From the NCBI GenBank assembly GCA_944323745.1, contig CALUTQ010000002.1, positions 496,001 through 560,000 of the forward strand: 64,000 nt of DNA, read 5' to 3'. The notes under the pieces are model-generated. The model was not told the origin of the DNA, searched no databases, and worked only from the letters and a program-made list of their open reading frames with translations. Numbering within the stretch: the first letter of the stretch is position 1; the number at the start of each line of letters is the position of its first letter. Source of the DNA: Candidatus Avelusimicrobium pullarium (GTDB taxonomy: Bacteria > Elusimicrobiota > Elusimicrobia > Elusimicrobiales > Elusimicrobiaceae). The position numbers were made by a program, and so were the translations under genes. Below are positions 45,099 through 63,772 of this stretch, piece by piece.

Positions 45099-45173
45099 TG
45101 GCGCCCTCTAGGAGAATCGAACTCCTCTTTTCGGATTGAAAATCCGACGTCCTAACCGATAGACGAAGAGGGC
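45099..45173 (-). tRNA. tRNA-Glu (anticodon TTC), CCA encoded
   Basis: A full cloverleaf on the minus strand: acceptor GCCCTCT / AGAGGGC, anticodon loop ATTTTCAAT with anticodon TTC, T arm GGAGTTCGATTCTCC, and an encoded 3' CCA (plus strand TGG at 45099-45101). It reads GAA/GAG. Confidence 0.95.
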
Positions 45174-45180
45174 TTAAAAG

Positions 45181-45252
45181 TGCGCCCGGTGAGACTTGAA
45201 CTCACGGCCCCCCGCTTAAAAGGCGGATGCTCTACCACTGAGCTACGAGCGC
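45181..45252 (-). tRNA. tRNA-Lys (anticodon TTT), no encoded CCA
   Basis: A 72-base cloverleaf on the minus strand: acceptor GCGCTCG / CGGGCGC with one G-T pair, D arm GCTCAGTGGTAGAGC, anticodon loop CTTTTAA with anticodon TTT, T arm GTGAGTTCAAGTCTCAC, discriminator A. The 3' CCA is not encoded. It is seven bases upstream of tRNA-Glu in the same transcript. Confidence 0.95.
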
Positions 45253-51866: not shown

Positions 51867-52409
51867 CTACAATCTGTATTGGGCAATTGTGGAACCCATA
51901 GAAGAAACGGTAGTTACAAACGTTCCCCCCATTGACTTGCAAACGCCTTCGGCCACATCGTTGGTGTCCGTCTTGGCCATACAATACAAATTGGGATAAC
52001 GTACATAAAAATACAAATCAGTGATAGGATCCATCTGAAAAGTGGCATTTAAATTGGTATGCTGAATGTTAAAACCGGCACTTTTAAACTTTTCCAGAGG
52101 CTCACCATTTCCATTGCTGGTAAACTCGTAATTGTCTATATCATATTCCCAGCCCATATCTTCCAACTTTTCGCAGTTGCCGCCGGCCATTAAGTCCAAA
52201 GCGCACAAATCTTTAAAATGTTTGGCAAAAACATACAGTTGAGCCGTTTTAGATTTCAGCACCGCTTTTTCATACTGCGGCAGGGCAATAGCCGCCAAAA
52301 TGCCGATAATCAGCACCACCACCAAAAGCTCAATAAGCGTAAAACCACTAAATTTGCTTTTTACGGGTCTTTCTACGTTGGGAATGTTTTTTTGATAAAT
52401 TTTGCTCAT
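51867..52409 (-). CDS. Type IV pilin with start-codon hairpin
   Basis: A 180-residue pilin from the ATG at 52409. The leader is unusually long (MSKIYQKNIPNVERPVKSKF) before SGFTLIELLVVVLIIGILAA. The mature part has two Cys pairs (LCALDLMAGGNC and YCMAK with VCKSMGGTF). The start codon sits in the loop of a perfect 19-base inverted repeat, preceded by TTGACT-16-TAAATT placed so that +1 is the start codon. The nearly identical arrangement occurs at the pilin at 63,222. A TTG at 52415 is part of the hairpin and rejected. Confidence 0.93.
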   Translation of the reverse strand: MSKIYQKNIPNVERPVKSKFSGFTLIELLVVVLIIGILAAIALPQYEKAVLKSKTAQLYVFAKHFKDLCALDLMAGGNCEKLEDMGWEYDIDNYEFTSNGNGEPLEKFKSAGFNIQHTNLNATFQMDPITDLYFYVRYPNLYCMAKTDTNDVAEGVCKSMGGTFVTTVSSMGSTIAQYRL

Positions 52410-52430
52410 AGGCAAAATTTATCAAAAAAA
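52387..52430 (-). repeat. Perfect inverted repeat around a pilin start codon
   Basis: Arms of 19 bases (52387-52405 and 52412-52430; TTTTTTTGATAAATTTTGC and its complement) with a six-base loop containing the ATG. The upstream arm includes the -10 TAAATT (52416-52421); TTGACT lies at 52443-52438. Confidence 0.9.
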
Positions 52431-52532
52431 AAAAACAAGTCAAGGCATTCCAGCAAGCGCGTTTTGCCAAACGGCACCTTTGTCACCAAATCAGGCAAAT
52501 AAGAATTAAAAAAATCTGAAGAGCCAGAGAAA

Positions 52533-52760
52533 TTACTCCCTCAGCAGGAAGATTTTGGCCGGAGAGGTAGCCCCTTTAATAAGGAAAAGTTTATTTTCCG
52601 CCACGCCCAAATGCGCCGCCAAGGCCGCACGCACGGCGGCATTGGCCAAACCGCGTTCGGCAGGGGCTTTGACCCAAATTTCAAAAGTGTCGGCGGACTT
52701 TGGCAGCAGTTTTTCTTTTTTTTCACCGGCGTGCACTTTTACTTTTATATACCTTTCCAT
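52533..52760 (-). CDS. DUF167 (YggU) family protein
   Basis: A 75-residue DUF167 protein: IKVKVHAGEKKEKLLPKSAD, VKAPAERGLANAAVRAALAA and FLIKGATSPAKIFLL fit the family. Function unknown. TAAAAT lies six bases (AAGCCT) before the ATG with no ribosome site, predicting leaderless translation. A weak hairpin and T run follow the stop. Confidence 0.85.
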   Translation of the reverse strand: MERYIKVKVHAGEKKEKLLPKSADTFEIWVKAPAERGLANAAVRAALAAHLGVAENKLFLIKGATSPAKIFLLRE

Positions 52761-52766
52761 AGGCTT

Positions 52767-52772
52767 ATTTTA
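52767..52772 (-). promoter_or_regulatory. -10 element of the DUF167 gene (leaderless)
   Basis: TAAAAT then AAGCCT and ATG at 52760. Confidence 0.6.
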
Positions 52773-52795
52773 CTTTTTTTATTTTTATTCTAAAA

Positions 52796-52830
52796 CAAAA
52801 ACGGGGGCAAACTTGCGTTTGTCCCCGTTT
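52796..52830 (-). terminator. Terminator of gpmI
   Basis: Minus-strand ACGGGGACAAAC GCAA GTTTGCCCCCGT followed by TTTT, 16 bases after the gpmI stop. Confidence 0.9.
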
Positions 52831-52845
52831 GATACGGCAGTGAAT

Positions 52846-54393
52846 TTATTTTTCAATCAGGCTCTTGGCAGTCATATCGGCCGGTTTTTTAAGGCCCATT
52901 ACCTGCAGAACCGTTACGGCTATATCGCCCAAGTTGCCCGTGGCGGCCATTTTGGCTTTGGCGTCGTCGGGGTTGACATAGACGAAATCTACCAGATTGG
53001 TCGTATGCGCCGTTTTGGGCATATTGATTTTTTCGTCCCACATTTCTTCGGCGTTGCCGTGGTCGGCCGTAATCATTACGGCATAACCCTTGGACAGGGC
53101 GGCTTCGGTCACTTTACCCACACATTCGTCCACCACTTCAATGGCTTTGACGACGGAATTAAAGTTGCCGGTATGGCCCACCATATCGCCGTTGGCAAAG
53201 TTAATGACAATAAAGTCATACTTGCCGCCTTCCACCTGTTTGACGGCTTCGTCCGCCACGCGGTAGGCTTCCATTTCCGGATGTTCGGCAAAGGTGGCGG
53301 GATCAAAACGCCCCTTAATTTCAATGCGGTCTTCGCCTTTATACGGTTGAATTTGCTTGCCGTTAAAGAACGAAGTGACGTGTTTAAATTTTTGCGTTTC
53401 GGCCAGGCGCAGCTGCTTCAGGCCTGCGTCGGAAATGACCTGCCCCAGCAGGTTATCCATACCGCCGCCGTCGGTCATAGACGGCAGGGCATTATAGGGG
53501 AAGGAATCATAATATTTGGTCAGCCCGCAGTACACACACGGCACGCGGTTGATTTTGCCCGGATAAGCGGGGTCAATAAACGCTTTGGTCAGCTGAATGG
53601 CGCGGTCTTGGCGGAAGTTAAAGAAAATCACGCTGTCGCCTTCGCTCATTCCTTTATAGTCCCCCAATACCGTAGGCGGAATATATTCGTCTACCATCGG
53701 GCCGCCGTCGGGCGTTTTGAGGGTGTCATAGTCGGTCTGTACGGCTTCTTCGGCCGTGGCGGCGTGAGCGCCCTGGGCGTGCACAATCAGGTTATAGGCT
53801 TTGTCGGTCAGTTCCCAGTTTTCGCTGCGGTCCATAGCATAGTAGCGGCCCTGAATAGTGGCAATTTGCCCTACGCCGCATTGTTTGATGACGTCTTCCA
53901 ACTTGCGGATAAACCCGATGGAAGATTTCGGCGGCGTGTCGCGTCCGTCGGAGAAAAAGTGAATATATACCTGTTTAATGCCTTTTCCGGCGGCGTATTT
54001 TAAAATAGCAAATAAATGGTCCTGATGCGCGTGGACGCCTTCGTCCTGCACCAAGCCCATTACGTGCAGCGCTTTATGGTTATTAAGGCAGTTGTCAATT
54101 ACGGCCGAAAACGCAGCCGACTTAAACAAAGAACCGTCTTCAATGGTGTCTTTAAGGCGTTTGAGTTCCTGCACCACAATGCGCCCCGCCCCCATATTCA
54201 GGTGACCCACTTCCGAAGAGCCCATATAGCCTGCAGGCAACCCCACCTGCTCGCCGGACGCTTCAATTTGCGTATGCGGCCACGCAGCCAGATATTTGTC
54301 CATATTCGGCGTTTTGGCGTTGCTGACGGCATTGTATTTGCCGGGTTTGGCGTCACCCCAGCCGTCGCGAATAATTAAAACTACTTTTTTCAT
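52846..54393 (-). CDS. gpmI: Cofactor-independent phosphoglycerate mutase
   Basis: A 515-residue GpmI from the ATG at 54393, which has AAGGAG seven bases upstream; a longer frame from 54468 overlaps the promoter region. IIRDGWGDAKPGKYNAVSN, nucleophile Ser-60 in GYMGSSEVGHLNMGAGR, HFFSDGRDTPPKS, and MITADHGNAEEMWD for the two-metal site are present. It interconverts 3- and 2-phosphoglycerate with manganese in glycolysis. TATAAT near 54,440 and a GTGACG 18 bases upstream form a plausible promoter. Confidence 0.96.
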   Translation of the reverse strand: MKKVVLIIRDGWGDAKPGKYNAVSNAKTPNMDKYLAAWPHTQIEASGEQVGLPAGYMGSSEVGHLNMGAGRIVVQELKRLKDTIEDGSLFKSAAFSAVIDNCLNNHKALHVMGLVQDEGVHAHQDHLFAILKYAAGKGIKQVYIHFFSDGRDTPPKSSIGFIRKLEDVIKQCGVGQIATIQGRYYAMDRSENWELTDKAYNLIVHAQGAHAATAEEAVQTDYDTLKTPDGGPMVDEYIPPTVLGDYKGMSEGDSVIFFNFRQDRAIQLTKAFIDPAYPGKINRVPCVYCGLTKYYDSFPYNALPSMTDGGGMDNLLGQVISDAGLKQLRLAETQKFKHVTSFFNGKQIQPYKGEDRIEIKGRFDPATFAEHPEMEAYRVADEAVKQVEGGKYDFIVINFANGDMVGHTGNFNSVVKAIEVVDECVGKVTEAALSKGYAVMITADHGNAEEMWDEKINMPKTAHTTNLVDFVYVNPDDAKAKMAATGNLGDIAVTVLQVMGLKKPADMTAKSLIEK

Positions 54394-54464
54394 AAAACAC
54401 TCCTTAATATGCCGCGCAAAGCGGCCCTGATTACTTATATTATATGAAAGTGTCCGCCTGTCCG

Positions 54465-55076
54465 TCACGGCAGGGGCGTCAGTCCCAGCACGGCCGTGGC
54501 GTGGCGTTTAAACTGATATTGCTGTAATTCTTCCAGCGTGCGCACGCCGCAGCGGGCAAACTCGTGCAAAAAGTTATACAGAATTTTTTCCGTCATACGC
54601 ACGTCTGCCATAGCGCGGTGGGCGCCTTCTGCGCTGATGCCCAGCGAAGCGGCTATAACGCCCAAATTGTTGCGGTGGAAGCGGCCGTTTTTGCGGGCCA
54701 ATTTCAGCGTATCCACCACCGGATAGTGCGGCAAGCGCAGCCCGCAGGAGGCGGTTTCGTTATCTAAAAAAGAGAGGTCAAACTCGGCATTGTGCGCCAC
54801 TAATACGCAGCCGTCCAAAAGAGCCAAAAGACGCGGCAAAATATCGGCAAAAGACGGGGCGTCTTTTACCATTTCATTGGTAATGCCGTGTATGGCTATT
54901 ACGTCGGGGTGCATAGGCATACCGGGGTTTAACAGGGTGGAAAATTCTTCCAGCCGGCGGCCATTTTGGCTGACGGAGACGGCAATTTCGCATATTTTGC
55001 CGCCTTCCTTCGGGGAAAGACCGGTCGTTTCGGTATCTAAACAGGCAAATTTTACTTCAGTAAGCGGTGTTGTCAT
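54465..55076 (-). CDS. DnaQ-like 3'-5' exonuclease
   Basis: A 203-residue DEDD exonuclease from the ATG at 55076, which overlaps the upstream stop as ATGA. ExoI FACLDTETTGLSPKEG, ExoII LVAHNAEFDLSFLDN and ExoIII HRAMADVRMTEKIL are intact. It resembles the epsilon subunit of DNA polymerase III or related proofreading/RNase T exonucleases; which one is not decidable from this window. A longer frame to 55394 runs through the membrane protein gene in another frame and is rejected. Confidence 0.93.
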   Translation of the reverse strand: MTTPLTEVKFACLDTETTGLSPKEGGKICEIAVSVSQNGRRLEEFSTLLNPGMPMHPDVIAIHGITNEMVKDAPSFADILPRLLALLDGCVLVAHNAEFDLSFLDNETASCGLRLPHYPVVDTLKLARKNGRFHRNNLGVIAASLGISAEGAHRAMADVRMTEKILYNFLHEFARCGVRTLEELQQYQFKRHATAVLGLTPLP

Positions 55077-55783
55077 TGCAAAAAGAAACTCCATTTTACC
55101 AGTAACCCTACCGCCATAGAACCGAATGCGCTGAAATACAGCGCAAAGCGCGAAAAATCCATCAGCCGGTTTTGCCGTGCCATACGGCAGGCCCACAGCC
55201 ATACCGCACACCACAGCACCCAGCGCCAGCCGGGCAGCAAGGTCATCAGATAAAAAATCAGGCGCATAAGCATTGTTACAAAACTTTCGTCCATCGTGGG
55301 CACATCGCGGCCGTACCAATCTTGTTCCGTCATAAAAATAAATACGCTGAACATTTTGGTAACTACCAGCAGGCCCACCGCAAACACAAACCACGGCTCA
55401 GCCATCAGGTTGCCCGTTTCATAAAGCACCTTGGTCGGCGCACAAAGCAGAATAAACAAAAGCGCCAGCACATCGTGTATAACAAACGTAAGAATATGCC
55501 CTTTTTGCTGGCCGGCCCGATAGACCATCATTTTGTTGTTGGTGGCTTCAAACAAAGCAAACGCCGCCACACATATCACGGCCGGCAACGGCCAAAGCCC
55601 CAGCAAGGGCCACGGGATATTTAAATAAGGCCAGGTCAATGCACCGCCGATTAAAAAATAAGCGGCTACCTGCAACCCCCAAGCCAGCAGCGGCCGGCGG
55701 TCCCGCCAGGAAAAGAAAGTTTGATTGTAAAATAAAACCGCACAAATATAATACGCCAGCACTAAACGCCAGAAAACGCTCAT
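55073..55783 (-). CDS. Polytopic membrane protein, unknown
   Basis: A 236-residue protein with about seven hydrophobic helices. HILTFVIHDVLALLFILL, FVFAVGLLVVTKMFSVFIFM and FMTEQDWYGRDVPTMDESFV are striking but do not identify a family to me. It starts four bases before the kinase stop and ends in the exonuclease start, so the three genes are translationally coupled. I give no function. Confidence 0.8.
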   Translation of the reverse strand: MSVFWRLVLAYYICAVLFYNQTFFSWRDRRPLLAWGLQVAAYFLIGGALTWPYLNIPWPLLGLWPLPAVICVAAFALFEATNNKMMVYRAGQQKGHILTFVIHDVLALLFILLCAPTKVLYETGNLMAEPWFVFAVGLLVVTKMFSVFIFMTEQDWYGRDVPTMDESFVTMLMRLIFYLMTLLPGWRWVLWCAVWLWACRMARQNRLMDFSRFALYFSAFGSMAVGLLVKWSFFLQ

Positions 55784-57492
55784 TTTTCCTCCTTAGGCAA
55801 ACGCAAAATAAACGTACTGCCCTGCCCGGGCAAAGACTGCACCGTCAAGTCGCCCCCGTGGGCGCGGGCCAGCTGGCGGCTGATAAAAAGCCCCAGTCCG
55901 TAACCTTCGGCCGTTTCGTCCACCTGGCGGTATTTTTCAAAAACTTCGCGGCATTGTTTTTCGTCCATTCCTTTGCCGCTGTCACGCACGGAAACGACCG
56001 TCTGGCCGTTTTCTTCGTACGCCTGTGTTTCTATAAAACCCTGTTGGGTAAATTTGACCGCATTGGAAAGCAAATTGGTCACAATACGCCGCAGCAGTTT
56101 CGGGTCGGCCCAAGCCGTTACGTTCTGGTCACAGGTCAGCTCCAGCCGCAAATTTTTTTCTTTGGCGGCCGGCTCTATAGTATGCAGCACATTTTGCAAA
56201 AGCGGCCGCACCGAAAGATTTTGCCGCTGCGGCAGCGTCATACCGGCCTGCACGCGGGAAACGGCCAATACGTCTTCCAAAAGAGACGACAAATTCTGTG
56301 TGCCTTCTTTCATACGCTGCAAATATTCTTTTTTTTGTTCTTCCGTAGCTTTGCCGCTGGAAAGCAGATAAATATATCCCTGCAAGCCAAGCAGCGGTGC
56401 GCGCAAATCGTGTGCAACGGAACGGAAAATCTGTTCTTTCATTTCGCTGACTTGGTTTTTAATCTGCAAAGCCTGATAATCTTTTAAATCTGCCGTCATT
56501 TTATTAAAAGAAACAATCAGCTGTTGCAGTTCCCCCCAGCCGGCGTCTTCGTTTACCCGGTGGTCCAAATTGCCGCGGCTAACTTCCCGCGCGCCTTGCG
56601 CCAGTGCGGCAATCGGCTCACCCAAACTGCGCGAAAACGTCAGCGCCCCAAAATAAGCCAGCGTGGCGATAGCCAGCAAAAACAAAAAAATCACAATGTT
56701 AGAAAAATACAGGCTGCGCAAGGCTTCTTCCCGCGGTTGCAAGACGGTTATATACACGCCCAACGGCGCCGCCGATGCATACGCCCCCACCATAACGCCG
56801 TTTTGGGAAGGCAGTTTTTTGATAAACCGGTTTTTGTTTTCAAACACTTTTTGCAAATCGGCCGCGTTTACACCCGGCTGCCATTGAAAGGGAAGCAAAA
56901 ATAAATTGCCGTCCGCGGCGGCCAAATACACTTGCCCCGTACGGCCAATGCGCATTTGCTGCAGCCGGTCCAACAGTTCATACAAGCTTAATATCCCGTA
57001 TAAAAAACGCCCGTCCGCCAGCGGATAAACGAACTCCGCCACCGGCGCGGCGGCCGTAGGCTGCAAGGCCGTCAAATAAATACGCGGGTTTGCGGCCATA
57101 TCGTTTAAGGAAGCATCCGCGCTTAAATCTATTTTTTCGCCGGGTTCGGCGTCTGTGCCGCGGCGCACACGCAGTTGCTCGCGGCCGTTTTGGTCCAATA
57201 CGGCCAAGAGCACGAAATCGGGGTTGGTATCCAGCGCGTTTGCAAGCAGGGCAGATACGTCTTGTTTTTTATCGGACAAAAAAGGAATCTGCCGGCTGAA
57301 AGCCAGGCGCCAGTTTAGCTCCTCCGTATAATGGTTGATGTTGTAGGAAACAATTTCCGCCAGATTGTAATGCGTCTCCAAGATATTGTCCTGCTGACGG
57401 TTCTGATAGTAGGCAAGCAGCAGCGCCATGGGAATAAGCGGCATAAGCACCACGGTCAGAAAAAGTTTAAAAAGTTTAGAAAATATGGACAT
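55780..57492 (-). CDS. Membrane sensor histidine kinase
   Basis: A 570-residue kinase from the ATG at 57492. Helix 1 (LFLTVVLMPLIPMALLLAYY) and helix 2 (VIFLFLLAIATLAYFGAL, about 280) enclose a periplasmic Cache-like sensor; HAMP, then HisKA FRSVAHDLRAPLLGLQGY (His about 360) and ATPase boxes NLLSNAVKFT, VRDSGKGMD and YGLGLFISRQL follow. No response regulator is adjacent. TGCTATAAT ends ten bases before the ATG, giving a leader of about four bases. It is divergent from the exported CMD-fold gene. Confidence 0.9.
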   Translation of the reverse strand: MSIFSKLFKLFLTVVLMPLIPMALLLAYYQNRQQDNILETHYNLAEIVSYNINHYTEELNWRLAFSRQIPFLSDKKQDVSALLANALDTNPDFVLLAVLDQNGREQLRVRRGTDAEPGEKIDLSADASLNDMAANPRIYLTALQPTAAAPVAEFVYPLADGRFLYGILSLYELLDRLQQMRIGRTGQVYLAAADGNLFLLPFQWQPGVNAADLQKVFENKNRFIKKLPSQNGVMVGAYASAAPLGVYITVLQPREEALRSLYFSNIVIFLFLLAIATLAYFGALTFSRSLGEPIAALAQGAREVSRGNLDHRVNEDAGWGELQQLIVSFNKMTADLKDYQALQIKNQVSEMKEQIFRSVAHDLRAPLLGLQGYIYLLSSGKATEEQKKEYLQRMKEGTQNLSSLLEDVLAVSRVQAGMTLPQRQNLSVRPLLQNVLHTIEPAAKEKNLRLELTCDQNVTAWADPKLLRRIVTNLLSNAVKFTQQGFIETQAYEENGQTVVSVRDSGKGMDEKQCREVFEKYRQVDETAEGYGLGLFISRQLARAHGGDLTVQSLPGQGSTFILRLPKEEK

Positions 57493-57502
57493 ATCCTTAT
57501 TT

Positions 57503-57511
57503 ATTATAGCA
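57503..57511 (-). promoter_or_regulatory. Extended -10 of the kinase gene
   Basis: TTGCTATAAT (57503-57512) predicts transcription from about 57,496, only four bases before the ATG. An AAGG overlaps this spacing, so both leaderless and near-leaderless starts are possible. Confidence 0.6.
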
Positions 57512-57535
57512 ATTACACACCCCGCTTCGGCCCTA

Positions 57536-57566
57536 TTGACTTGGAGGGAACTCCAGCATTTATAAT
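57536..57566 (+). promoter_or_regulatory. Promoter and operator of the CMD-fold gene
   Basis: TTGACT (57536-57541) and TATAAT (57561-57566) with a 19-base spacer. The spacer holds a perfect inverted repeat TGGAG GGAA CTCCA (57542-57555), placed where a repressor or activator could act. Leader about 28 bases with AAGGAG before the ATG. Confidence 0.55.
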
Positions 57567-57600
57567 AACTATTATACCCCAACCCTGCAAGGAGAATACT

Positions 57601-58452
57601 ATGCAAAAAACAATACAATTTCTTTTACCTCTTTGTTTGCTGGCTTTGCAAAGCGTGCCGGCTTTTGCCGCAGACGAAAATAAAACCCGCGCACAAAAAG
57701 CCGACGAAACATTTAAACGCTTGTTTGCCGCGCAAAGGCAGGCCGACCCCACCGACCCGGAATTAATGCAAATACTGCAGGAGTTTATATTCGGCGAAGT
57801 GTTTTATATCGGCGATTTGGACGATAAAACCCGCGAACTGATTACCGTCGTTTCTTTAGCCAGCATCCAAACGCTGCCCCAATTAAAAGCCCATATCAAT
57901 GCGGCTTTAAATGTGGGCAACACCCCGCTGGCTGTGCGGGAAGCACTTTATTTATGTGCGCCGTTCATCGGCTTTCCGCGCACACTTAACGCCATTGCCG
58001 TGTTTAACGAAGTGGCAAAAGAACGCGGCATTCCCCTTCCTTTAAAAGACCAAGGCACCGTTTCCGACCAAACCCGCTATGCCAAAGGGCTTGAAATACA
58101 AACGCCTTTATACGGTGATGAAGTAAAAACCGCTATGGCGGCCTTGCCCGCACCCTATGCCGAAAAAGTGCCTTATATTTTAACTTCGTTTGCGTTTGGA
58201 GATTTTTATACCCGCAAAGGGTTAAGCGAAAAAGAAAAAGAACTGCTGGTGTTGGTCATTTTGGCCGCCGGCGGGGCCGACAAACAACTAAGCGCCCATA
58301 TTATAGGCAATTTTAAAGCGGGCAACAGTAAAGAAACCCTGCTGGCGGCTATGGTGCAGGCGATGCCTTATATCGGTATGCCCAATGCCTTAACGGCCAT
58401 CAACCTGATTAAAAACGCCGATGCAGCCAACTATAAACCTATTTACGATTAA
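57601..58452 (+). CDS. Exported protein with two carboxymuconolactone-decarboxylase domains
   Basis: A 283-residue protein with a signal peptide (FLLPLCLLALQSVPAFAA). Two PcaC-type domains follow: DDKTRELITVVSLASIQTLP with LKAHINAALNVGNTPLAVRE, and KEKELLVLVILAAGGADKQL with SAHIIGNFKAGNSKETLLAA, each ending in a (P)NALTAI-like segment. This fold includes gamma-carboxymuconolactone decarboxylases; exported two-domain members are common in gut bacteria and their substrate is usually unknown. AAGGAG precedes the ATG. It is single and ends at a strong terminator. Confidence 0.9.
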   Translation: MQKTIQFLLPLCLLALQSVPAFAADENKTRAQKADETFKRLFAAQRQADPTDPELMQILQEFIFGEVFYIGDLDDKTRELITVVSLASIQTLPQLKAHINAALNVGNTPLAVREALYLCAPFIGFPRTLNAIAVFNEVAKERGIPLPLKDQGTVSDQTRYAKGLEIQTPLYGDEVKTAMAALPAPYAEKVPYILTSFAFGDFYTRKGLSEKEKELLVLVILAAGGADKQLSAHIIGNFKAGNSKETLLAAMVQAMPYIGMPNALTAINLIKNADAANYKPIYD

Positions 58453-58471
58453 CCCGTTTCCGTTTGTATCT

Positions 58472-58494
58472 ACCCGCCGAAAGGCGGGTTTTTT
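58472..58494 (+). terminator. Terminator of the CMD-fold gene
   Basis: CCCGCC GAAA GGCGGG followed by TTTTTT. Confidence 0.93.
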
Positions 58495-58537
58495 ATGGGT
58501 CTAAAGGCCTAGTTTGTCTGGGCCGGGCCGACACATT

Positions 58538-58587
58538 AAAAACAGGTCCAAAAAACAACCGGTTTTGGGCCTTAAGACTCTGTTTTT
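58538..58587 (+). repeat. Nested inverted repeat in an intergenic region
   Basis: AAAAACAG (58538-58545) pairs with CTGTTTTT (58580-58587), enclosing GGTCCAAAA (58545-58553) and TTTTGGGCC (58563-58571). It lies between the CMD terminator and the small gene at 58,616. It may be a weak terminator or regulatory hairpin. Confidence 0.5.
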
Positions 58588-58615
58588 GTTCCGTCTAAAG
58601 CGATAGACTAATAAT

Positions 58616-58882
58616 ATGAAATACGCTTGGGAACAAATCAAAAGAAACATTCTGCTCTATACCTATCGCCGGCGGGTAAACGCCTTACGTTCGTACCTGA
58701 CAAAAGCGGCCGTGGTAGATTTGAGCGCCAACGAACAAGATTTTATTGATTTTCAAACGAACCGTATGCTGCAGCGCAAAACCGCCCGCCAACGCCGGCT
58801 GGACCCTTCGCAAGATTGGACGGCGTCTTTGCCGTATATGCCCCGCCGCGGAAGCGCCCACGCTGTCTATACGGCCCGTTAA
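58616..58882 (+). CDS. Small basic protein, unknown
   Basis: Eighty-eight residues rich in Arg, Lys and Gln (for example RMLQRKTARQRRLDPSQD), with an N-terminal helix MKYAWEQIKRNILLYTYRRR. No family recognised. TAGACT stands six bases before the ATG with no ribosome site, consistent with leaderless expression. A GC-rich terminator follows. It could be a nucleic-acid-binding protein from its charge, but this is only inference. Confidence 0.5.
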   Translation: MKYAWEQIKRNILLYTYRRRVNALRSYLTKAAVVDLSANEQDFIDFQTNRMLQRKTARQRRLDPSQDWTASLPYMPRRGSAHAVYTAR

Positions 58883-58920
58883 GGCTTACAGCCGCACCGA
58901 TTAACATTCATCACCTCCTC

Positions 58921-58950
58921 CCCCGCGCTTTACCGCGCGGGGTTCTTTTT
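58921..58950 (+). terminator. Terminator of the small basic protein gene
   Basis: CCCCGCGC TTTACC GCGCGGGG followed by TTCTTTTT. Confidence 0.9.
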
Positions 58951-59011
58951 GCTATAAAATAAATTTGTTATGTAGGGCCTGCGCATAAAACGCGGCCCGA
59001 CCGTTAAAAAT

Positions 59012-59347
59012 ATGATGGAATTAATTACCCAATACCCTGCAGAATGGGCCTATATTTGGCTTATTTTTCAAGCTTACTGGCTGATTAAAATGAACCGCAA
59101 AGTTTGGTCCGTTTTGGGGTTTGCCCTTTTGCACGGCTGTTTTTTGTGGTTTATGCTGGCCTACCGCACGGAAATGACACCCCTTTACGGCTGGCACGGG
59201 CGCACATCGGACAATGCAATGTCTTCCTTCGGGCTTATTTTTTTAGCCTGGTTGGCACTGGCCGTGGTATATATGACAAAGGTTCTTTTGCTGCCGCGCA
59301 AACACCCCGCACCGTCGGCGGCAGACCGGCGCACGCCCCGCTCATAA
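59012..59347 (+). CDS. Small membrane protein, unknown
   Basis: A 111-residue protein with three hydrophobic helices: AYIWLIFQAYWLI (about 13-25), VLGFALLHGCFLWFMLAY (about 34-51) and SFGLIFLAWLALAVVYMTKV (about 72-91), and a basic Pro-rich tail. No family recognised. A TGCTATAAA element near 58,950 could supply a leader of about 50 bases; no clear ribosome site. It faces the etfA gene across a shared terminator. Confidence 0.6.
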   Translation: MMELITQYPAEWAYIWLIFQAYWLIKMNRKVWSVLGFALLHGCFLWFMLAYRTEMTPLYGWHGRTSDNAMSSFGLIFLAWLALAVVYMTKVLLLPRKHPAPSAADRRTPRS

Positions 59348-59414
59348 GGTTTTGTTTATCCTGCTAGCCGCCGCCACATACCCCGCCGCCGATAAAACAC
59401 ATTTTGCAAACAAT

Positions 59415-59445
59415 AAAAAACCCCGCTCGCAGGAGCGGGGTTTTA
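59415..59445 (-). terminator. Shared terminator between the small membrane protein and etfA
   Basis: CCCCGCTC GCAG GAGCGGGG flanked by AAAAAA on the left and TTTTA on the right, so it can work in both directions; on the minus strand it closes acd-etfBA. Confidence 0.85.
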
Positions 59446-59459
59446 GCATACGGAAAGAC

Positions 59460-60662
59460 TTATTTGCCTTTGGCTTTTTTTACGGCGTCCACCACTTTGG
59501 GCAAAAGCTGCCGCGCATCACCCACAAAACCGTATTTGCATACGTTAAAGATGGGGGCGTTGGCGTCTTTGTTCACAGCAATAATCACGTCGCTGTGTTC
59601 CATACCCACAATGTGCTGCACCGCGCCGGAAATACCGCACGCCACATACAGCTTGGCCGCTACGGTTACGCCGGACTGACCGACCTGTTTTTCTTTGGGT
59701 CTGAGTCCCAAGTCAATGGCCGCGCGGGAAGCACCCACCGCACCGCCCAGCTCGGCAGCCAAATCATCCAGCAAGGCAAAGCCTGCCGCGTCTTTCATAC
59801 CGCGGCCGCCGGCAATGACCACTTCGGCTTCGTCCAATTTTTCCTGGGCGGAAGTTTCGTCAAAGTGTTTGCTGATAATGCGCACCTTGCCCGCTTCGGC
59901 GGGCACGGCAATCGCTTCGTTGACGATTTGCGCCATACTGCCCGGGCGGGTAACCACTTTTTTAAACACGTTGGGGCGCACGGTGGACATTTGCGGACGA
60001 TAGTCCGGGCATTTGATGTCTGCCATAATGTTGCCGCCGAAAGCGGGACGGGTTTGAATAAGCAAACCGTCCGCCACGGAAAGGCCCGTGCAGTCGGCCG
60101 TCAAGCCCACAAACAGTTCCGAAGAAATGCGCGGGGACAAATCGCGGCCGATATACGTGGAAGGAAACAGCACCACGCTGGGGTTATATTTTTTAATCAG
60201 CGTTACCATAGCATTGGCATACGCAATGGTATTGTAATCGTGATAGGCGGCACCGTTGACGGCATAAATTTTGTCGGCGCCGTAAGAAGACAGCTCGGCA
60301 AAATATTTATCCACGCCGTCGCCAATGACTACGGCGCAAAGTTCTTCGCCCAGCTGGTCGGCCAGTTCGCGGCCTTTGGACAAAAGTTCAAAGCCCACGG
60401 GGCGCACCTTTTGGGTTTTTCCGTCATCGGTAATTTCAATAAAGGCCCACACGCCTTTGTAGGCGGAAAGGTCTTTTTTAACATTGGCCGCACCCGTAGC
60501 CGGCAAAGACAGGGCTTTAACGGGGCACACGCTCACGCACGCGCCGCACATCGTGCAGCTGCTGTTGGGCACCGCTTTGCGGTTGACCAAGGAGAGCGCT
60601 CCGAACGGACAAGTGGCCACGCATTTGCCGCAGCCGACACAATTAGAAGCAACCTGAATCAT
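59460..60662 (-). CDS. etfA: Electron transfer flavoprotein alpha subunit with N-terminal ferredoxin
   Basis: A 400-residue EtfA. Residues 1-65 form a 2[4Fe-4S] ferredoxin (CVGCGKCVATCPFG and CTMCGACVSVCPVKA), not present in classical EtfA of about 320 residues. The EtfA domain follows with VWAFIEITDDGKTQKV, PSTYIGRDLSPRI, and the FAD-binding C-terminus with KEKQVGQSGVTVAAKLYVAC and GISGAVQHIVGMEHSDVII. The ferredoxin suggests electron exchange with ferredoxin or hydrogenase, as in CarE of the caffeyl-CoA reductase-Etf complex. Start overlaps etfB by four bases. Confidence 0.95.
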   Translation of the reverse strand: MIQVASNCVGCGKCVATCPFGALSLVNRKAVPNSSCTMCGACVSVCPVKALSLPATGAANVKKDLSAYKGVWAFIEITDDGKTQKVRPVGFELLSKGRELADQLGEELCAVVIGDGVDKYFAELSSYGADKIYAVNGAAYHDYNTIAYANAMVTLIKKYNPSVVLFPSTYIGRDLSPRISSELFVGLTADCTGLSVADGLLIQTRPAFGGNIMADIKCPDYRPQMSTVRPNVFKKVVTRPGSMAQIVNEAIAVPAEAGKVRIISKHFDETSAQEKLDEAEVVIAGGRGMKDAAGFALLDDLAAELGGAVGASRAAIDLGLRPKEKQVGQSGVTVAAKLYVACGISGAVQHIVGMEHSDVIIAVNKDANAPIFNVCKYGFVGDARQLLPKVVDAVKKAKGK

Positions 60663-61447
60663 TTGACAAAACTCTCCTTTTTCAAAATTTCAACAAACTT
60701 GGCGGCCATTTCTTCGGCAGAGCCGGAAATCATTTCGCCTTTGGCTCTGGCAGCCGGCGGGAAAATGCGCGCCACACGGGTGGGCGAGCCTTCCAACCCC
60801 ACCTTATGCAGGTCGGCATTGATGTCCGCCGCGGACCAAACGTAAATTTGTTTATCCTGCGCTTTATGCGCCGCCATAAAAGACGGATATTTGGCCACAT
60901 AGTCCACCGGCATCGTCATCGTGATGAGCACCGGCAGGTCGGCTTGCATAATCTGGTGGCCGCCTTCAATGAGCTTTTTGACTACGGCGTGCTGGCCGTC
61001 GCTGTCCACGCTGTCGCAGAACGTAATTTGCGGGATGCCCAGGTGGAAAGCAATGCCGGGGCCCGTTTGGGCCGTATCGCCGTCAATAGCCATTTGGCCG
61101 CAGAGGATCAAATCGTACTGGCCGACTTTCCGAATGGTGGTGGCCAATGCGTAAGACGTGGCCCACGTATCGGAACCGGCAAAGGCACGGTCGGAAAGCA
61201 ATACGCCTTCGTCAGCGCCCAAGGCCAAGGCCAGGCGCAGCACGGCTACGGCCTGGTTGGGGCCCATAGACACCACCGTCACTTTGGCGCCCGTTTTGGC
61301 TTTAATGGCCAGGGCTTTTTCCAGCGCGTAGTGGTCATAGGGGTTTAAAATGCTGGGTACGCCGGCACGAATGAGGGTGCCGGTCTTCGGGTCCACCTTG
61401 ACCTGGGTGGAATCGGGTACTTGTTTAATACATACGATAATGTTCAT
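60659..61447 (-). CDS. etfB: Electron transfer flavoprotein beta subunit
   Basis: A 262-residue EtfB: CIKQVPDSTQVKVDPKTGTL at the N-terminus, ALAIKAKTGAKVTVVSMGPN, DLILCGQMAIDGDTAQTGPG and VLITMTMPVDY. The sequence DTAQTGPG lies in the nucleotide site that separates bifurcating from non-bifurcating Etfs, but I cannot classify it by eye. It is placed ten bases after the acyl-CoA dehydrogenase gene. Confidence 0.95.
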   Translation of the reverse strand: MNIIVCIKQVPDSTQVKVDPKTGTLIRAGVPSILNPYDHYALEKALAIKAKTGAKVTVVSMGPNQAVAVLRLALALGADEGVLLSDRAFAGSDTWATSYALATTIRKVGQYDLILCGQMAIDGDTAQTGPGIAFHLGIPQITFCDSVDSDGQHAVVKKLIEGGHQIMQADLPVLITMTMPVDYVAKYPSFMAAHKAQDKQIYVWSAADINADLHKVGLEGSPTRVARIFPPAARAKGEMISGSAEEMAAKFVEILKKESFVK

Positions 61448-61456
61448 AGTATGTCC

Positions 61457-63097
61457 TTATGCTTTAAAAGTATCTCTGAGTTTGGCCGACACGAGGTCTT
61501 CGTCGTTAATCAAGCCGGTCATTTTTTCTTCAATGCCGACCAGATTGACGCCGGCGGACAAATCTTGCGCAGAGGCAGCGCCCACGCCCAAGATGAGTTT
61601 CATTCCTTCGGTGGCAATCTTAAACGCGCTCAAGCGGGCATTGACGCGAGACATTACTTTGAGCGTATTTAAGTCAAAGCGGCTGCCTTCGGTCACTTTG
61701 CCTTCGGCGCACTGGCGCGCAAAAACGGCGGCCACTTCCGCTTCGCTGATCAGGTCGCCCAGCATAAAGGTAATATACTGGTGGCGGGTCAGTTTCTGGG
61801 CGCGGCAGTCTTCCAGCACGCGGGCCAAAGCGCGCAAACCCAAGGCCACGCTGTCTGCACCCACATCGGGGTGCTGCGCGTGAATGGCTTCAAATTCTTC
61901 GGCTTGTTTGATGTAGTACTGACCGCGGGTCTTGAGGTGTTCCTGCCAGCGGCCGCGGAAGATGGTCATTTCCAGCACTTCGCTGGTGCCTTCGTAAATG
62001 CAGGTAATTTTGACGTCGCGTTTAATTTTTTCCACCGCAAATTCTTTGGTATAGCCGAAACCGCCCATCGCCTGAATGGAATCTTCGGCGGCCTTGTTGC
62101 CCGATTCGGTGGCATAGAGTTTGGCAATGGCGCCTTCAGTGGCTAAGCCGTGGTTATTGACTTCCAGCTGTTTGGCCGTCCAGTCAATGTACGCGCGGGC
62201 CGCTTCAAAGCGCACATAGTGCGGGGTGATGAGCTTAAGCATAAAGCCCTGCTTTTGGGCCAGCGGGCCGCCGGCCTGAATGCGCTGCTGGGCGTAAATT
62301 AAAGCGGTTTCTACGGCTTCTTCGCCGGCGCCCAAACCAAACGCGGCTACCATAAGGCGCGTATAGCCAAACACGGCCTGCGCCTGCAGGAACCCTTTGC
62401 CTTCTTCCAAACCGATTAAATTTTCGGCCGGCACGTACACTTCGTCAAAAGCCAAACCGGCAGTGTTGGACAAGCGAATGCCGTGTTTGTCTTCGTGCGC
62501 GTCCTGCGTAAAGCCGGGGGTGCCTTTTTCCACAATAAACCAGCTCGGGCCGCCCGGGGCCAAAGCCAGCACGGTGTAAATATCGGCTACGCCGCCGTTG
62601 GAAATCCACATTTTGCTGCCGGTGATTTTATAACCGACGATTTTGCCGTCCTTTTCCACGCGGTCGGCACGGGTGCGCAAAGACACCAGGTCAGAGCCGG
62701 CGTCGGCTTCCGTCGCGCCGTAAGCGACCAGTTTGTTTTCGTGCGCAATTTTTTGGAACCATTTGGCCTTTTGTTCCGGGGTGCCGCCTACGTTAATCGG
62801 GTCGCTGCCCAAGAAGGTGGCAAACACGCCGGTGGCGATACCCAAATCAATGCGCGCCAGCTGTTCGCAAACGCGGTAGATTTCGGTCGTCTGGCCGCCG
62901 AGGCCGCCGTATTCTTCGGGAATAAGCAAAAGATGCACGCCCAGCACGTCGTGGTCGTACATCTCTTTTAAAATATCTAGGGGAATTTCGTTCTTCGCGT
63001 CGTGTTCGCGGAGAAACTCGTGGGAAATCCTGTTCTTGGCATATTGCTTCAAACTGTCCAACATCAGGTTCCTGGTAGTCAGGTCATTTTTTGCCAT
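61457..63097 (-). CDS. Acyl-CoA dehydrogenase with C-terminal extension
   Basis: A 546-residue flavoprotein. The first ~390 residues are a normal acyl-CoA dehydrogenase with YGGLGGQTTEIYRVCEQLAR, KLVAYGATEADAGSDLVSLR and the catalytic Glu in KITCIYEGTSEVLEMTIFRG. About 150 further residues form a helical C-terminal domain, as in long-chain enzymes. With EtfAB it should reduce or oxidise an acyl-CoA while passing electrons to ferredoxin or NAD; in an anaerobe the reductive direction (for example crotonyl- to butyryl-CoA, or another enoyl-CoA) is plausible. GGAG precedes the ATG. Confidence 0.93.
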   Translation of the reverse strand: MAKNDLTTRNLMLDSLKQYAKNRISHEFLREHDAKNEIPLDILKEMYDHDVLGVHLLLIPEEYGGLGGQTTEIYRVCEQLARIDLGIATGVFATFLGSDPINVGGTPEQKAKWFQKIAHENKLVAYGATEADAGSDLVSLRTRADRVEKDGKIVGYKITGSKMWISNGGVADIYTVLALAPGGPSWFIVEKGTPGFTQDAHEDKHGIRLSNTAGLAFDEVYVPAENLIGLEEGKGFLQAQAVFGYTRLMVAAFGLGAGEEAVETALIYAQQRIQAGGPLAQKQGFMLKLITPHYVRFEAARAYIDWTAKQLEVNNHGLATEGAIAKLYATESGNKAAEDSIQAMGGFGYTKEFAVEKIKRDVKITCIYEGTSEVLEMTIFRGRWQEHLKTRGQYYIKQAEEFEAIHAQHPDVGADSVALGLRALARVLEDCRAQKLTRHQYITFMLGDLISEAEVAAVFARQCAEGKVTEGSRFDLNTLKVMSRVNARLSAFKIATEGMKLILGVGAASAQDLSAGVNLVGIEEKMTGLINDEDLVSAKLRDTFKA

Positions 63098-63147
63098 GGG
63101 GTAATATCTCCATTACAATATATATATGTAAATGATACCAATTTTTG

Positions 63148-63178
63148 AGCCCCCGCGCATACACACGGGGGCTCTTTA
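63148..63178. other. GC-rich hairpin between acd and a pilin gene
   Basis: GAGCCCCCGCG / CACGGGGGCTC stem with loop CATACA. The T run after it is weak on either strand, so it may be an inefficient terminator or an mRNA end-protection structure. It follows the pilin at 63,222 by about 45 bases on the minus strand. Confidence 0.5.
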
Positions 63179-63221
63179 AGCTAAGGATATCCATCTTTTT
63201 ACAAAGCTAAAACTAAATTTA

Positions 63222-63719
63222 TTAATTAAGTTTATAATAATTATTACTACCATTATTATGATCTATAACGGAAGACCCCAAAGATTTACAAATATTATTT
63301 AGTTTTTCATCCGCTTGCGGGGCTATACAGAATTGTGCCCCTCCCCAACCAGTAAACTGCTGACAAAACTCAAACCCCAAATTCTTTTGTGGATGATGGG
63401 CAATAATACCGCATCCCCCGTTTTCATATCTGTAATAACTGTTTTCGGGAACTTTAATATCCAAATCATCTAAGCTGGTAATTGTTTCCCCATTAGTCAT
63501 TATATATACGTTTAGGGAATTCTGCAAAGCACGCAGCATAGTAACCGCTTCCACCGCGCGGGTTTTTTCCACCGCTTTTTCATATTGCGGCAGCGCAATA
63601 GCCGCCAAAATGCCAATAATCAGCACCACCACCAAAAGCTCAATAAGCGTAAACCCGCCCAATTTGCCTTTGGCGGGGTTTTCAGAACAAATAGTGTTTT
63701 TTTGATAAATTTTGCACAT
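63222..63719 (-). CDS. Type IV pilin with start-codon hairpin (second)
   Basis: A 165-residue pilin from the ATG at 63719. The leader MCKIYQKNTICSENPAKGKL is long, followed by GGFTLIELLVVVLIIGILAA and a mature part with Cys in GGCGIIAHH, FEFCQQF, QFCIAP and ICKSLGSS. The start codon is in the loop of the same 19-base inverted repeat seen at 52,387, with the same TTGACT-16-TAAATT placed for a leaderless mRNA. The leader codons after the ATG encode the hairpin arm, giving the shared M(S/C)KIYQKN start. Confidence 0.93.
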   Translation of the reverse strand: MCKIYQKNTICSENPAKGKLGGFTLIELLVVVLIIGILAAIALPQYEKAVEKTRAVEAVTMLRALQNSLNVYIMTNGETITSLDDLDIKVPENSYYRYENGGCGIIAHHPQKNLGFEFCQQFTGWGGAQFCIAPQADEKLNNICKSLGSSVIDHNNGSNNYYKLN

Positions 63720-63740
63720 ACGCAAAATTTATCAAAAAAA
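63697..63740 (-). repeat. Perfect inverted repeat around the second pilin start codon
   Basis: Arms 63697-63715 and 63722-63740, identical to the copy at 52,387-52,430, loop ACATAC. The -10 TAAATT is at 63726-63731 and TTGACT at 63748-63753. Confidence 0.9.
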
Positions 63741-63772
63741 AAAAACAAGTCAAGCCGTTTGGTTTTATCAAT

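What the first reader, a model, noticed from the sequence alone, without database searches (positions are those of the whole stretch)
52385..63754. Sixty-base promoter/start-codon hairpin shared by two pilin genes 11 kb apart
Bases 52,385-52,444 and 63,695-63,754 match at 58 of 60 positions; the two differences are in the six-base loop around the ATG. The block holds TTGACT, a 12-T tract, TAAATT six bases before the ATG, and a perfect 19-base inverted repeat that brackets the start codon. The coding arm also encodes the start of the prepilin leader (M-S/C-KIYQKN). Sequence on both sides diverges at once, and the pilin bodies differ strongly. This looks like a conserved control cassette that can be moved between pilin genes, and the hairpin could hide the start codon of a leaderless mRNA or bind a regulator as DNA.
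Basis: partly seen in the sequence, partly recalled or inferred. Interest (0 to 1): 0.8.

Follow-up and report, generated by a model that had tools for sequence, protein, structure and literature searches.

The report
Start-codon palindrome shared by fifty pilin genes
A gut bacterium carries the same short mirror-image promoter, with the start codon in its middle, in front of about fifty different pilus genes; it looks like a shared switch for the cell's pilus proteins, and I found no description of such a layout on this scale.

Summary
The genome (1.6 Mb, near Candidatus Avelusimicrobium, Elusimicrobiaceae) holds at least 54 copies, not two: 52 precede an intact, divergent type IV pilin gene, 2 a broken one; the genome has 106 pilin-type matches. 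The 60-bp block is an extended -10 promoter (TTG-N5-T12-TGATAAATT) whose predicted start site is the A of the ATG, so the mRNA should be leaderless; the dyad is centred there. The DNA, not the peptide, is conserved: 1 synonymous change in 235 arm codons while helix codons vary freely; two copies keep the arm in another reading frame; two arm pairs covary. In sister species the same promoter drives pilin genes with a Shine-Dalgarno site, and 8 of 66 such sites carry other palindromes on the same predicted start site, with the ATG 32-36 nt downstream. So the palindrome goes with the transcription start, not with the start codon: most likely an operator for an unidentified dimeric regulator of a pilin regulon. 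Against: two lineages let the coding arm drift without compensation; no regulator was found. The movable-cassette and start-codon-hiding readings are not favoured. New variant of a known kind.

The parts
52438..52443 (-). -35-like TTGACT of copy A
52424..52435 (-). T12 tract in the -35/-10 spacer, copy A
   Evidence: T12 in 41 of 51 genomic copies tabulated
52416..52424 (-). extended -10 TGATAAATT (hexamer TAAATT 52416-52421), spacer 16
52412..52430 (-). promoter-side 19-base arm of the palindrome, copy A (core 11 bp 52413-52423)
52407..52409 (-). ATG in the loop; its A is the predicted transcription start and the dyad centre (inferred)
   Evidence: start site from -10 spacing, inference
52387..52405 (-). 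coding-side 19-base arm, copy A (core 52394-52404), encodes leader residues SKIYQKN
51867..52409 (-). prepilin gene A, 180 aa
63748..63753 (-). -35-like TTGACT of copy B
63734..63745 (-). T12 tract, copy B
63726..63734 (-). extended -10 TGATAAATT, copy B
63722..63740 (-). promoter-side 19-base arm, copy B
63717..63719 (-). ATG in the loop, copy B
63697..63715 (-). coding-side 19-base arm, copy B
63222..63719 (-). prepilin gene B, 165 aa
49196..49651 (-). a pilin gene without the element (contrast)

Best explanation
The block is a dedicated promoter plus operator for a large pilin regulon. Shown: at least 54 copies, pilin-specific, nucleotide-level conservation, dyad symmetry centred where the -10 spacing puts the transcription start, covariation at two arm pairs, and the same promoter without the start-codon fusion in sister species. 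Inferred: the A of the ATG is +1 (leaderless mRNA translated without a Shine-Dalgarno site); a dimeric DNA-binding protein reads the two half-sites (GATANNTTTTG - N8 - CAAAANNTATC), which cover the -10 hexamer, +1 and the first codons, and so shuts off (or gates) transcription of about half of the cell's pilin genes together. The coding arm has become the constant start of the prepilin leader (M-x-KIYQK), which prepilin peptidase should remove with the rest of the leader.
For: Pilin specificity: 51 of 51 tabulated intact copies have the pilin helix and so has a 52nd (L294); no two of the 51 bodies reach 80% identity and 203 of 1275 pairs align at E 1e-5 over 60 aa. Arm codons K-I-Y-Q-K: 1 synonymous change in 235, whereas helix codons of the same genes vary widely and, past the helix, AAA, ATT, TAT, CAA are only 79, 48, 84, 63% of their sets. 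Two copies have a loop one base shorter and read MTKFIKK/MAKFIKK from the same arm DNA. Arm pair 4 (GATAx) covaries A-T/C-G/G-C: 59 of 69 distinct sequences Watson-Crick against 37.9 expected, 0 of 20000 shuffles; pair 11: 41 of 69 against 26.1, 0 of 20000; pairs 2-10 pair in 574 of 621 cells, 242-314 when slid by 1-2. Wobble pairs are rare (14 against 118 other mismatches in 3168 cells), which fits DNA recognition rather than an RNA stem. Palindrome and start codon are separable: 8 of 66 distinct T11+-GATA sites of other form carry palindromes centred 15.0-16.5 bases from the G of GATA (predicted start 15), with the ATG 32-36 nt further on in the 7 whose start was resolved, and L015 and L226 are leaderless pilin genes without palindrome. 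Extended -10 with TG.
Against: No regulator was identified or tested for. No RNA 5' ends exist here. In G063 the coding arm mismatches the promoter arm at pair 4 or 5 in nearly all copies (1 of 47 perfect); in G012 6 of 19 are perfect, so full symmetry is not needed everywhere. The pair-4 signal comes from G061 and G050; pair 4 hardly varies in G000. The innermost core pair shows no covariation (53 against 51.6). The start-site-centred palindrome is a minority among the Shine-Dalgarno-type promoters (8 of 66; none of 12 further rows), and 7 other sites have repeats at p 0.02 or less centred elsewhere. Copies are paralogues, so the shuffles overstate independence; my guess is only a few independent double changes.
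Confidence: 0.55

Rival explanations
1. RNA (or single-strand DNA) hairpin that hides the start codon: read-through transcripts fold and are not translated, only leaderless ones are.
For: Very stable predicted hairpin; ATG in the loop of all 51 tabulated copies; arm pairing conserved.
Against: If +1 is at the ATG the promoter arm is not transcribed. Wobble pairs are not favoured (14 of 132 mismatches). In sister species start-site-centred palindromes occur although the ATG lies 32-36 nt away behind a Shine-Dalgarno site.
Confidence: 0.12
2. By-product: the coding arm is an A-rich, unstructured start that helps translation of leaderless mRNA, and the symmetry is made and repaired by template-switch (quasi-palindrome) mutation rather than by selection for protein binding.
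For: A-rich early codons; matched double changes such as GATACA/TGTATC look like palindrome correction; symmetry not kept in G063 and G012.
Against: Codon-level invariance over the tabulated paralogues; frame-changed copies; palindromes of other sequence at the same place where the second arm is not coding.
Confidence: 0.17
3. Site-specific recombination site (two ~11-bp inverted arms round an 8-bp core, as in tyrosine-recombinase sites) that reshuffles pilin genes.
For: Geometry 11-8-11; at least 54 dispersed copies; bodies differ while the 5' part is kept at one orthologous locus (L011/L063); some element genomes have more than two tyrosine recombinases (G000 4, G007 6, G043 4).
Against: Core sequences vary between copies (18 loops in 51); several element-rich genomes have only two tyrosine recombinases (G016, G050, G053, G052, G013, G034), presumably the housekeeping XerC/XerD pair (recalled); all 51 tabulated copies point one way relative to GC skew, so no inversion pairs.
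Confidence: 0.06
4. Homopolymer phase-variation promoters: slippage of the T tract changes the -35/-10 spacing and turns single pilin genes on and off; the palindrome is secondary.
For: The T tract lies in the spacer; lengths 11-15 among twelve G031 sites read; lengths other than 12 in 10 of 51 G000 copies.
Against: In G000 41 of 51 copies hold exactly 12 T; it does not explain the palindrome; assemblies give one consensus length.
Confidence: 0.1

Closest known systems
acuR-acuI-dddL operon of Rhodobacter sphaeroides (PMC3017554; abstract and passages seen)
   Same: Leaderless mRNA starting exactly at the AUG, no Shine-Dalgarno site, inverted repeat (TAATAGAC-n6-GTCTATTA) overlapping the promoter, acted on by a TetR-family repressor.
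   Different: One autoregulated operon; in the paper's figure legend the repeat lies in the region upstream of the ATG. Here at least 54 unlinked sites at pilin genes, the dyad is centred on the ATG and its second arm is coding; regulator unknown.
CIRCE/HrcA operators (recalled)
   Same: Nearly invariant inverted repeat (9-9-9) serving as operator of several genes near their starts.
   Different: Sequence unrelated (TTAGCACTC recalled); chaperone genes; not fused with the start codon.
Homopolymer-tract promoters of phase-variable surface genes (Bordetella fim, Mycoplasma vlp; recalled; only the listing and abstract start of PMC1891110 seen)
   Same: Homopolymer in the promoter of surface-protein genes.
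   Different: Tract length here is mostly fixed at 12 in this genome; a palindrome follows; switching untested.
Type IV prepilins (Pfam N_methyl PF07963)
   Same: Gene products have the prepilin helix.
   Different: 106 such matches in 1.6 Mb, with a leader whose first residues are dictated by a DNA palindrome.

Membership tests
Type IV prepilin genes | N-terminal methylation/helix motif GFTLxE above Pfam cut-off | tested here: met
   33.8 and 27.8 bits against 21.2; 106 matches in the genome
Leaderless mRNA | -10 element so close to the ATG that +1 falls on it, no Shine-Dalgarno site | tested here: met
   -10 ends 6 nt before ATG, extended TG; the sequence before ATG is the promoter arm in the 51 tabulated copies
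Leaderless mRNA | mapped 5' end at AUG | not testable with these tools
   no RNA data
Operator of a dimeric regulator | dyad symmetry conserved beyond codon constraint | tested here: met
Operator of a dimeric regulator | symmetry kept in all lineages | tested here: not met
   G063 1 of 47 perfect, G012 6 of 19
Operator of a dimeric regulator | cognate DNA-binding protein | not tested
Tyrosine-recombinase core site | identical crossover core between partner sites | tested here: not met
   18 different loops in 51 copies
Tyrosine-recombinase core site | dedicated recombinase in every genome with the element | tested here: not met
   two matches only in G016, G050, G053, G052, G013, G034; 4-6 in G000, G007, G043
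MITE or mobile cassette | insertions regardless of gene context, precise empty sites | tested here: inconclusive
   copies sit at pilin starts; L009 empty, L010 remnant; target duplications not analysed
CIRCE | TTAGCACTC-N9-GAGTGCTAA sequence (recalled) | tested here: not met
   arms are GATAAATTTTG/CAAAATTTATC
Phase-variable homopolymer promoter | length variation within a population | not testable with these tools
   only consensus assemblies
Known RNA families | Rfam match above gathering score over the element | tested here: not met
   only a mir-3 hit at 30.9 bits against 54

The most novel reading that the evidence does not exclude
A pilin promoter class found in many species of one genus (TTG-N5-T11/15-TGATA), up to about 100 copies per genome, carries an exchangeable start-site-centred operator module; in some species the start codon was captured by the operator, so one regulator sets about fifty leaderless pilin genes together while slippage of the T tract varies single genes: a two-layer, combinatorial control of pilus composition in gut Elusimicrobiota.
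Probability: 0.3. Interest if true: 0.8.

Novelty: new variant of a known kind. Interest (0 to 1): 0.62.

Why it matters
A 1.6-Mb gut bacterium holds 106 pilin-type genes and seems to control about half of them through one nearly invariant element that is promoter, probable operator, start codon and leader peptide at once. It offers a simple, testable handle on why these bacteria keep such pilin arsenals, a natural series (palindrome absent, in the 5' leader, fused with the ATG; leaderless with and without palindrome) for the evolution of leaderless genes, and a regulon large enough to find its regulator biochemically.

Tried and rejected
Mobile or phage origin: the strict pattern has no exact match in the viral contig collection, and BLAST of the 60-mer finds nothing in 50,697 phage and 72,556 plasmid records. 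Known RNA family: none. Peptide selection for MSKIYQKN: rejected by synonymous invariance and the two frame-changed copies. Antisense -10 in the coding arm (a symmetric pair of promoters): considered because G061 and G063 variants keep TAnnnT in both arms, but the second arm of the G023/G033 palindromes (CCAATTTTT, TTCAATTTTT on the other strand) lacks it. Dedicated integrase: not seen in several element-rich genomes, but G000, G007 and G043 have 4-6 tyrosine recombinases. Literature: searches listed no title or abstract start on this element (I read no listed paper except passages of PMC3017554); the E. minutum genome paper is not held, and I recall but could not check that it reports many pilin genes.
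Full report
WHAT IS THERE. The two blocks are exactly as described: 58 of 60 identical, differences only in the six-base loop, divergence at once on both sides, perfect 19-6-19 inverted repeats round the ATG of two minus-strand pilin genes. No other perfect 19-6-19 repeat exists in the window.

SCALE. The window lies in a 1,615,768-base, two-contig genome. Relatives that encode the neighbouring acyl-CoA dehydrogenase at 69-100% identity (58 loci) are named Elusimicrobiales/Elusimicrobiaceae or uncultured bacteria, many with gut or faecal names, one of them Candidatus Avelusimicrobium. The palindrome occurs 52 times with at most 3 mismatches, control 0; a looser pattern gives 56 forward and 57 reverse hits, most sites being counted on both strands. 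I read 54 sites in DNA: 51 tabulated intact copies, a 52nd (C2:618551, L294), and two broken ones: C2:471280, with the element and a 17-residue frame but no pilin helix, apparently a truncated duplicate of 471964, and C2:593115 (L295), whose frame ends after 15 residues while a pilin helix lies just downstream in a 56-aa frame. All 51 tabulated copies have the GFTLxE pilin helix (48 by the strict motif, all 51 by the looser one), and so does the 52nd. The genome has 106 N_methyl matches, so about half carry the element. In relatives, of 43 distinct sites with a frame of at least 25 aa in held loci, 37 show the motif within 70 residues; of the six misses two differ by one motif residue, three are broken frames of 26-32 aa and one (L090) has no motif there.

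ANATOMY. TTG-N5-T12-TGATAAATTTTG-NNTATGNN-CAAAATTTATCAAAAAA. The -35-like TTGACT, 16-base spacer and TAAATT with a preceding TG score as an extended -10 promoter (such matches are not proof, two were found where shuffles gave 1.5). The -10 ends 6 nt before ATG, so +1 should be the A of the ATG (inference), and the dyad centre is between that A and the next T. T is 12 long in 41 of 51 copies, 11 in 3, 13 in 3, 14, 15, 7 and 6 once each. The promoter arm occupies the place of a Shine-Dalgarno site; of seven pilin genes without the element printed from the same genome at least three show such a site.

SELECTION ON DNA. In the 47 copies reading KIYQK, the five arm codons show one synonymous change in 235. 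The helix codons of the same genes use many synonyms, and no two pilin bodies reach 80% identity. Two copies (C1:495732, C2:583148) have a loop one base shorter, so the identical arm is read in another frame, MTKFIKK and MAKFIKK. Peptide selection therefore cannot explain the arm; purifying selection on DNA or element-only gene conversion can.

COMPENSATION, FOR AND AGAINST. G061 (L011's genome) and G050 contain copies with GATACA/TGTATC and GATAGA/TCTATC beside GATAAA/TTTATC, mostly matched. Excluding G063 and G012, 59 of 69 distinct sequences pair at this position against 37.9 expected, 0 of 20000 shuffles; this comes from G061 (1 of 20000) and G050 (0), while G000 and G007 hardly vary there. 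The pair next to the loop (pair 11) gives 41 of 69 against 26.1, 0 of 20000; the innermost core pair gives 53 against 51.6, no signal. Slid controls give 242-314 of 621 cells against 574. Against: G063 has a constant inner promoter arm and coding-arm codon 4 mostly as ATC, ACT, AAT or AAA, 1 of 47 copies perfect; G012 has 6 of 19 perfect. The copies are related, so these numbers count sequences, not events. Wobble pairs make 14 of 132 mismatches, no sign that an RNA helix is what is kept.

DISTRIBUTION. 22 of 61 genomes of the genus have the palindrome pattern, 1 to 53 matches; with a gapped pattern 22 of 149 genomes of the order, 22 of 66 in the genus and 0 of 83 outside. All 61 genomes have N_methyl matches, 22 to at least 112, with or without the palindrome (112 is the scoring cap).

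THE SAME PROMOTER WITHOUT THE START-CODON PALINDROME. In 14 of 15 genomes that had no match, T11+-GATA occurs, up to 102 times (G060). Of 48 such rows read, 40 have a pilin helix within 300 nt, often behind AAGGAG and a short leader. Of 66 distinct sites not of the start-codon form (from genomes with and without that form), 8 (L201, L206, L228, L234, L241, L245, L250, L253) carry palindromes of other sequence centred 15.0-16.5 bases from the G of GATA, where 15 is the predicted start site; shuffle p was at most 0.01 for each. The ATG lies 32-36 nt after the predicted start in seven; that of L228 was not resolved. Seven other sites have repeats with p of at most 0.02 centred elsewhere (9 to 23.5; five of them in G060, where the repeat includes the Shine-Dalgarno site). 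Twelve further rows of G023, G033, G044 had none (its other three rows repeat G047 sites). Example L201: T11-GATAAATTTTG-TTGAAAA-CAAAATTTAGTTAAAAAAGGGG...ATG. Conversely L015 and L226 have the promoter with the ATG six bases after the -10 and no palindrome. So palindrome and start codon are separable, and the dyad goes with the start site. This is the main reason to prefer a transcriptional operator over a start-codon hairpin.

IS IT MOBILE? Upstream of the acyl-CoA dehydrogenase gene (window 61457-63097) relatives show an alignable pilin with element (L056), a pilin with a different body (L011, L063), pilins without the element, a 3' remnant (L010) and no pilin (L009). That reads as gain, loss and divergence of genes rather than excision of a cassette; ends of insertions were not analysed. 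All 51 tabulated copies run with the strand that GC skew marks as leading; the skew sign agrees in the held stretches except two near zero, C1:183 kb and C2:178 kb.

HOW IT WORKS (committed view). RNA polymerase uses the extended -10 with the T12 spacer; transcripts begin at the A of the ATG and are translated leaderless; a dimeric regulator on GATANNTTTTG-N8-CAAAANNTATC blocks open-complex formation and so sets the pilin set as one regulon. The closest tested precedent is acuR of R. sphaeroides, where the mRNA begins exactly at AUG and a TetR-family repressor acts through an inverted repeat over the promoter (PMC3017554, passages). Shown: copies, conservation, symmetry, position, specificity. 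Inferred: +1, leaderless translation, regulator, direction of control.

Noticed in passing
L177-L188 (G060, G041): Another class of pilin leaders shares ACGGCTG...CAGCCGTTTTATTGGGTTTCATAAACAG before AAGGAG-ATG: a GC stem followed by T, like a terminator or attenuator; no meaningful Rfam match.
   Followed up: partly
L237, L251, L264-L273 (G031): The T tract of twelve pilin promoters varies from 11 to 15, changing the -35/-10 spacing: phase-variation candidates.
   Followed up: no
G060 sites L178, L249, L274, L276, L278: Bases just after the -10 (ATTCTCTC and like) are complementary to the Shine-Dalgarno stretch GGAGAGAAT.
   Followed up: no
G000:C2:471280 and 471964 (L134): Neighbouring copies with identical 45 bases upstream and the same leader start; the upstream one stops after the leader, a truncated duplicate.
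   Followed up: partly
whole genome: 106 prepilin-type matches in 1.6 Mb; first-look counts reach 257 in a sister genome.
   Followed up: partly
L015, L226: Pilin genes with the T-tract promoter and the ATG at the predicted start site but no palindrome.
   Followed up: partly
L023:1071-1100: The TTGACTTG-T12-GATACAAT promoter occurs without palindrome, 27 bases identical to the window block.
   Followed up: partly
window 45102-45252: Two tRNA genes side by side on the minus strand.
   Followed up: no
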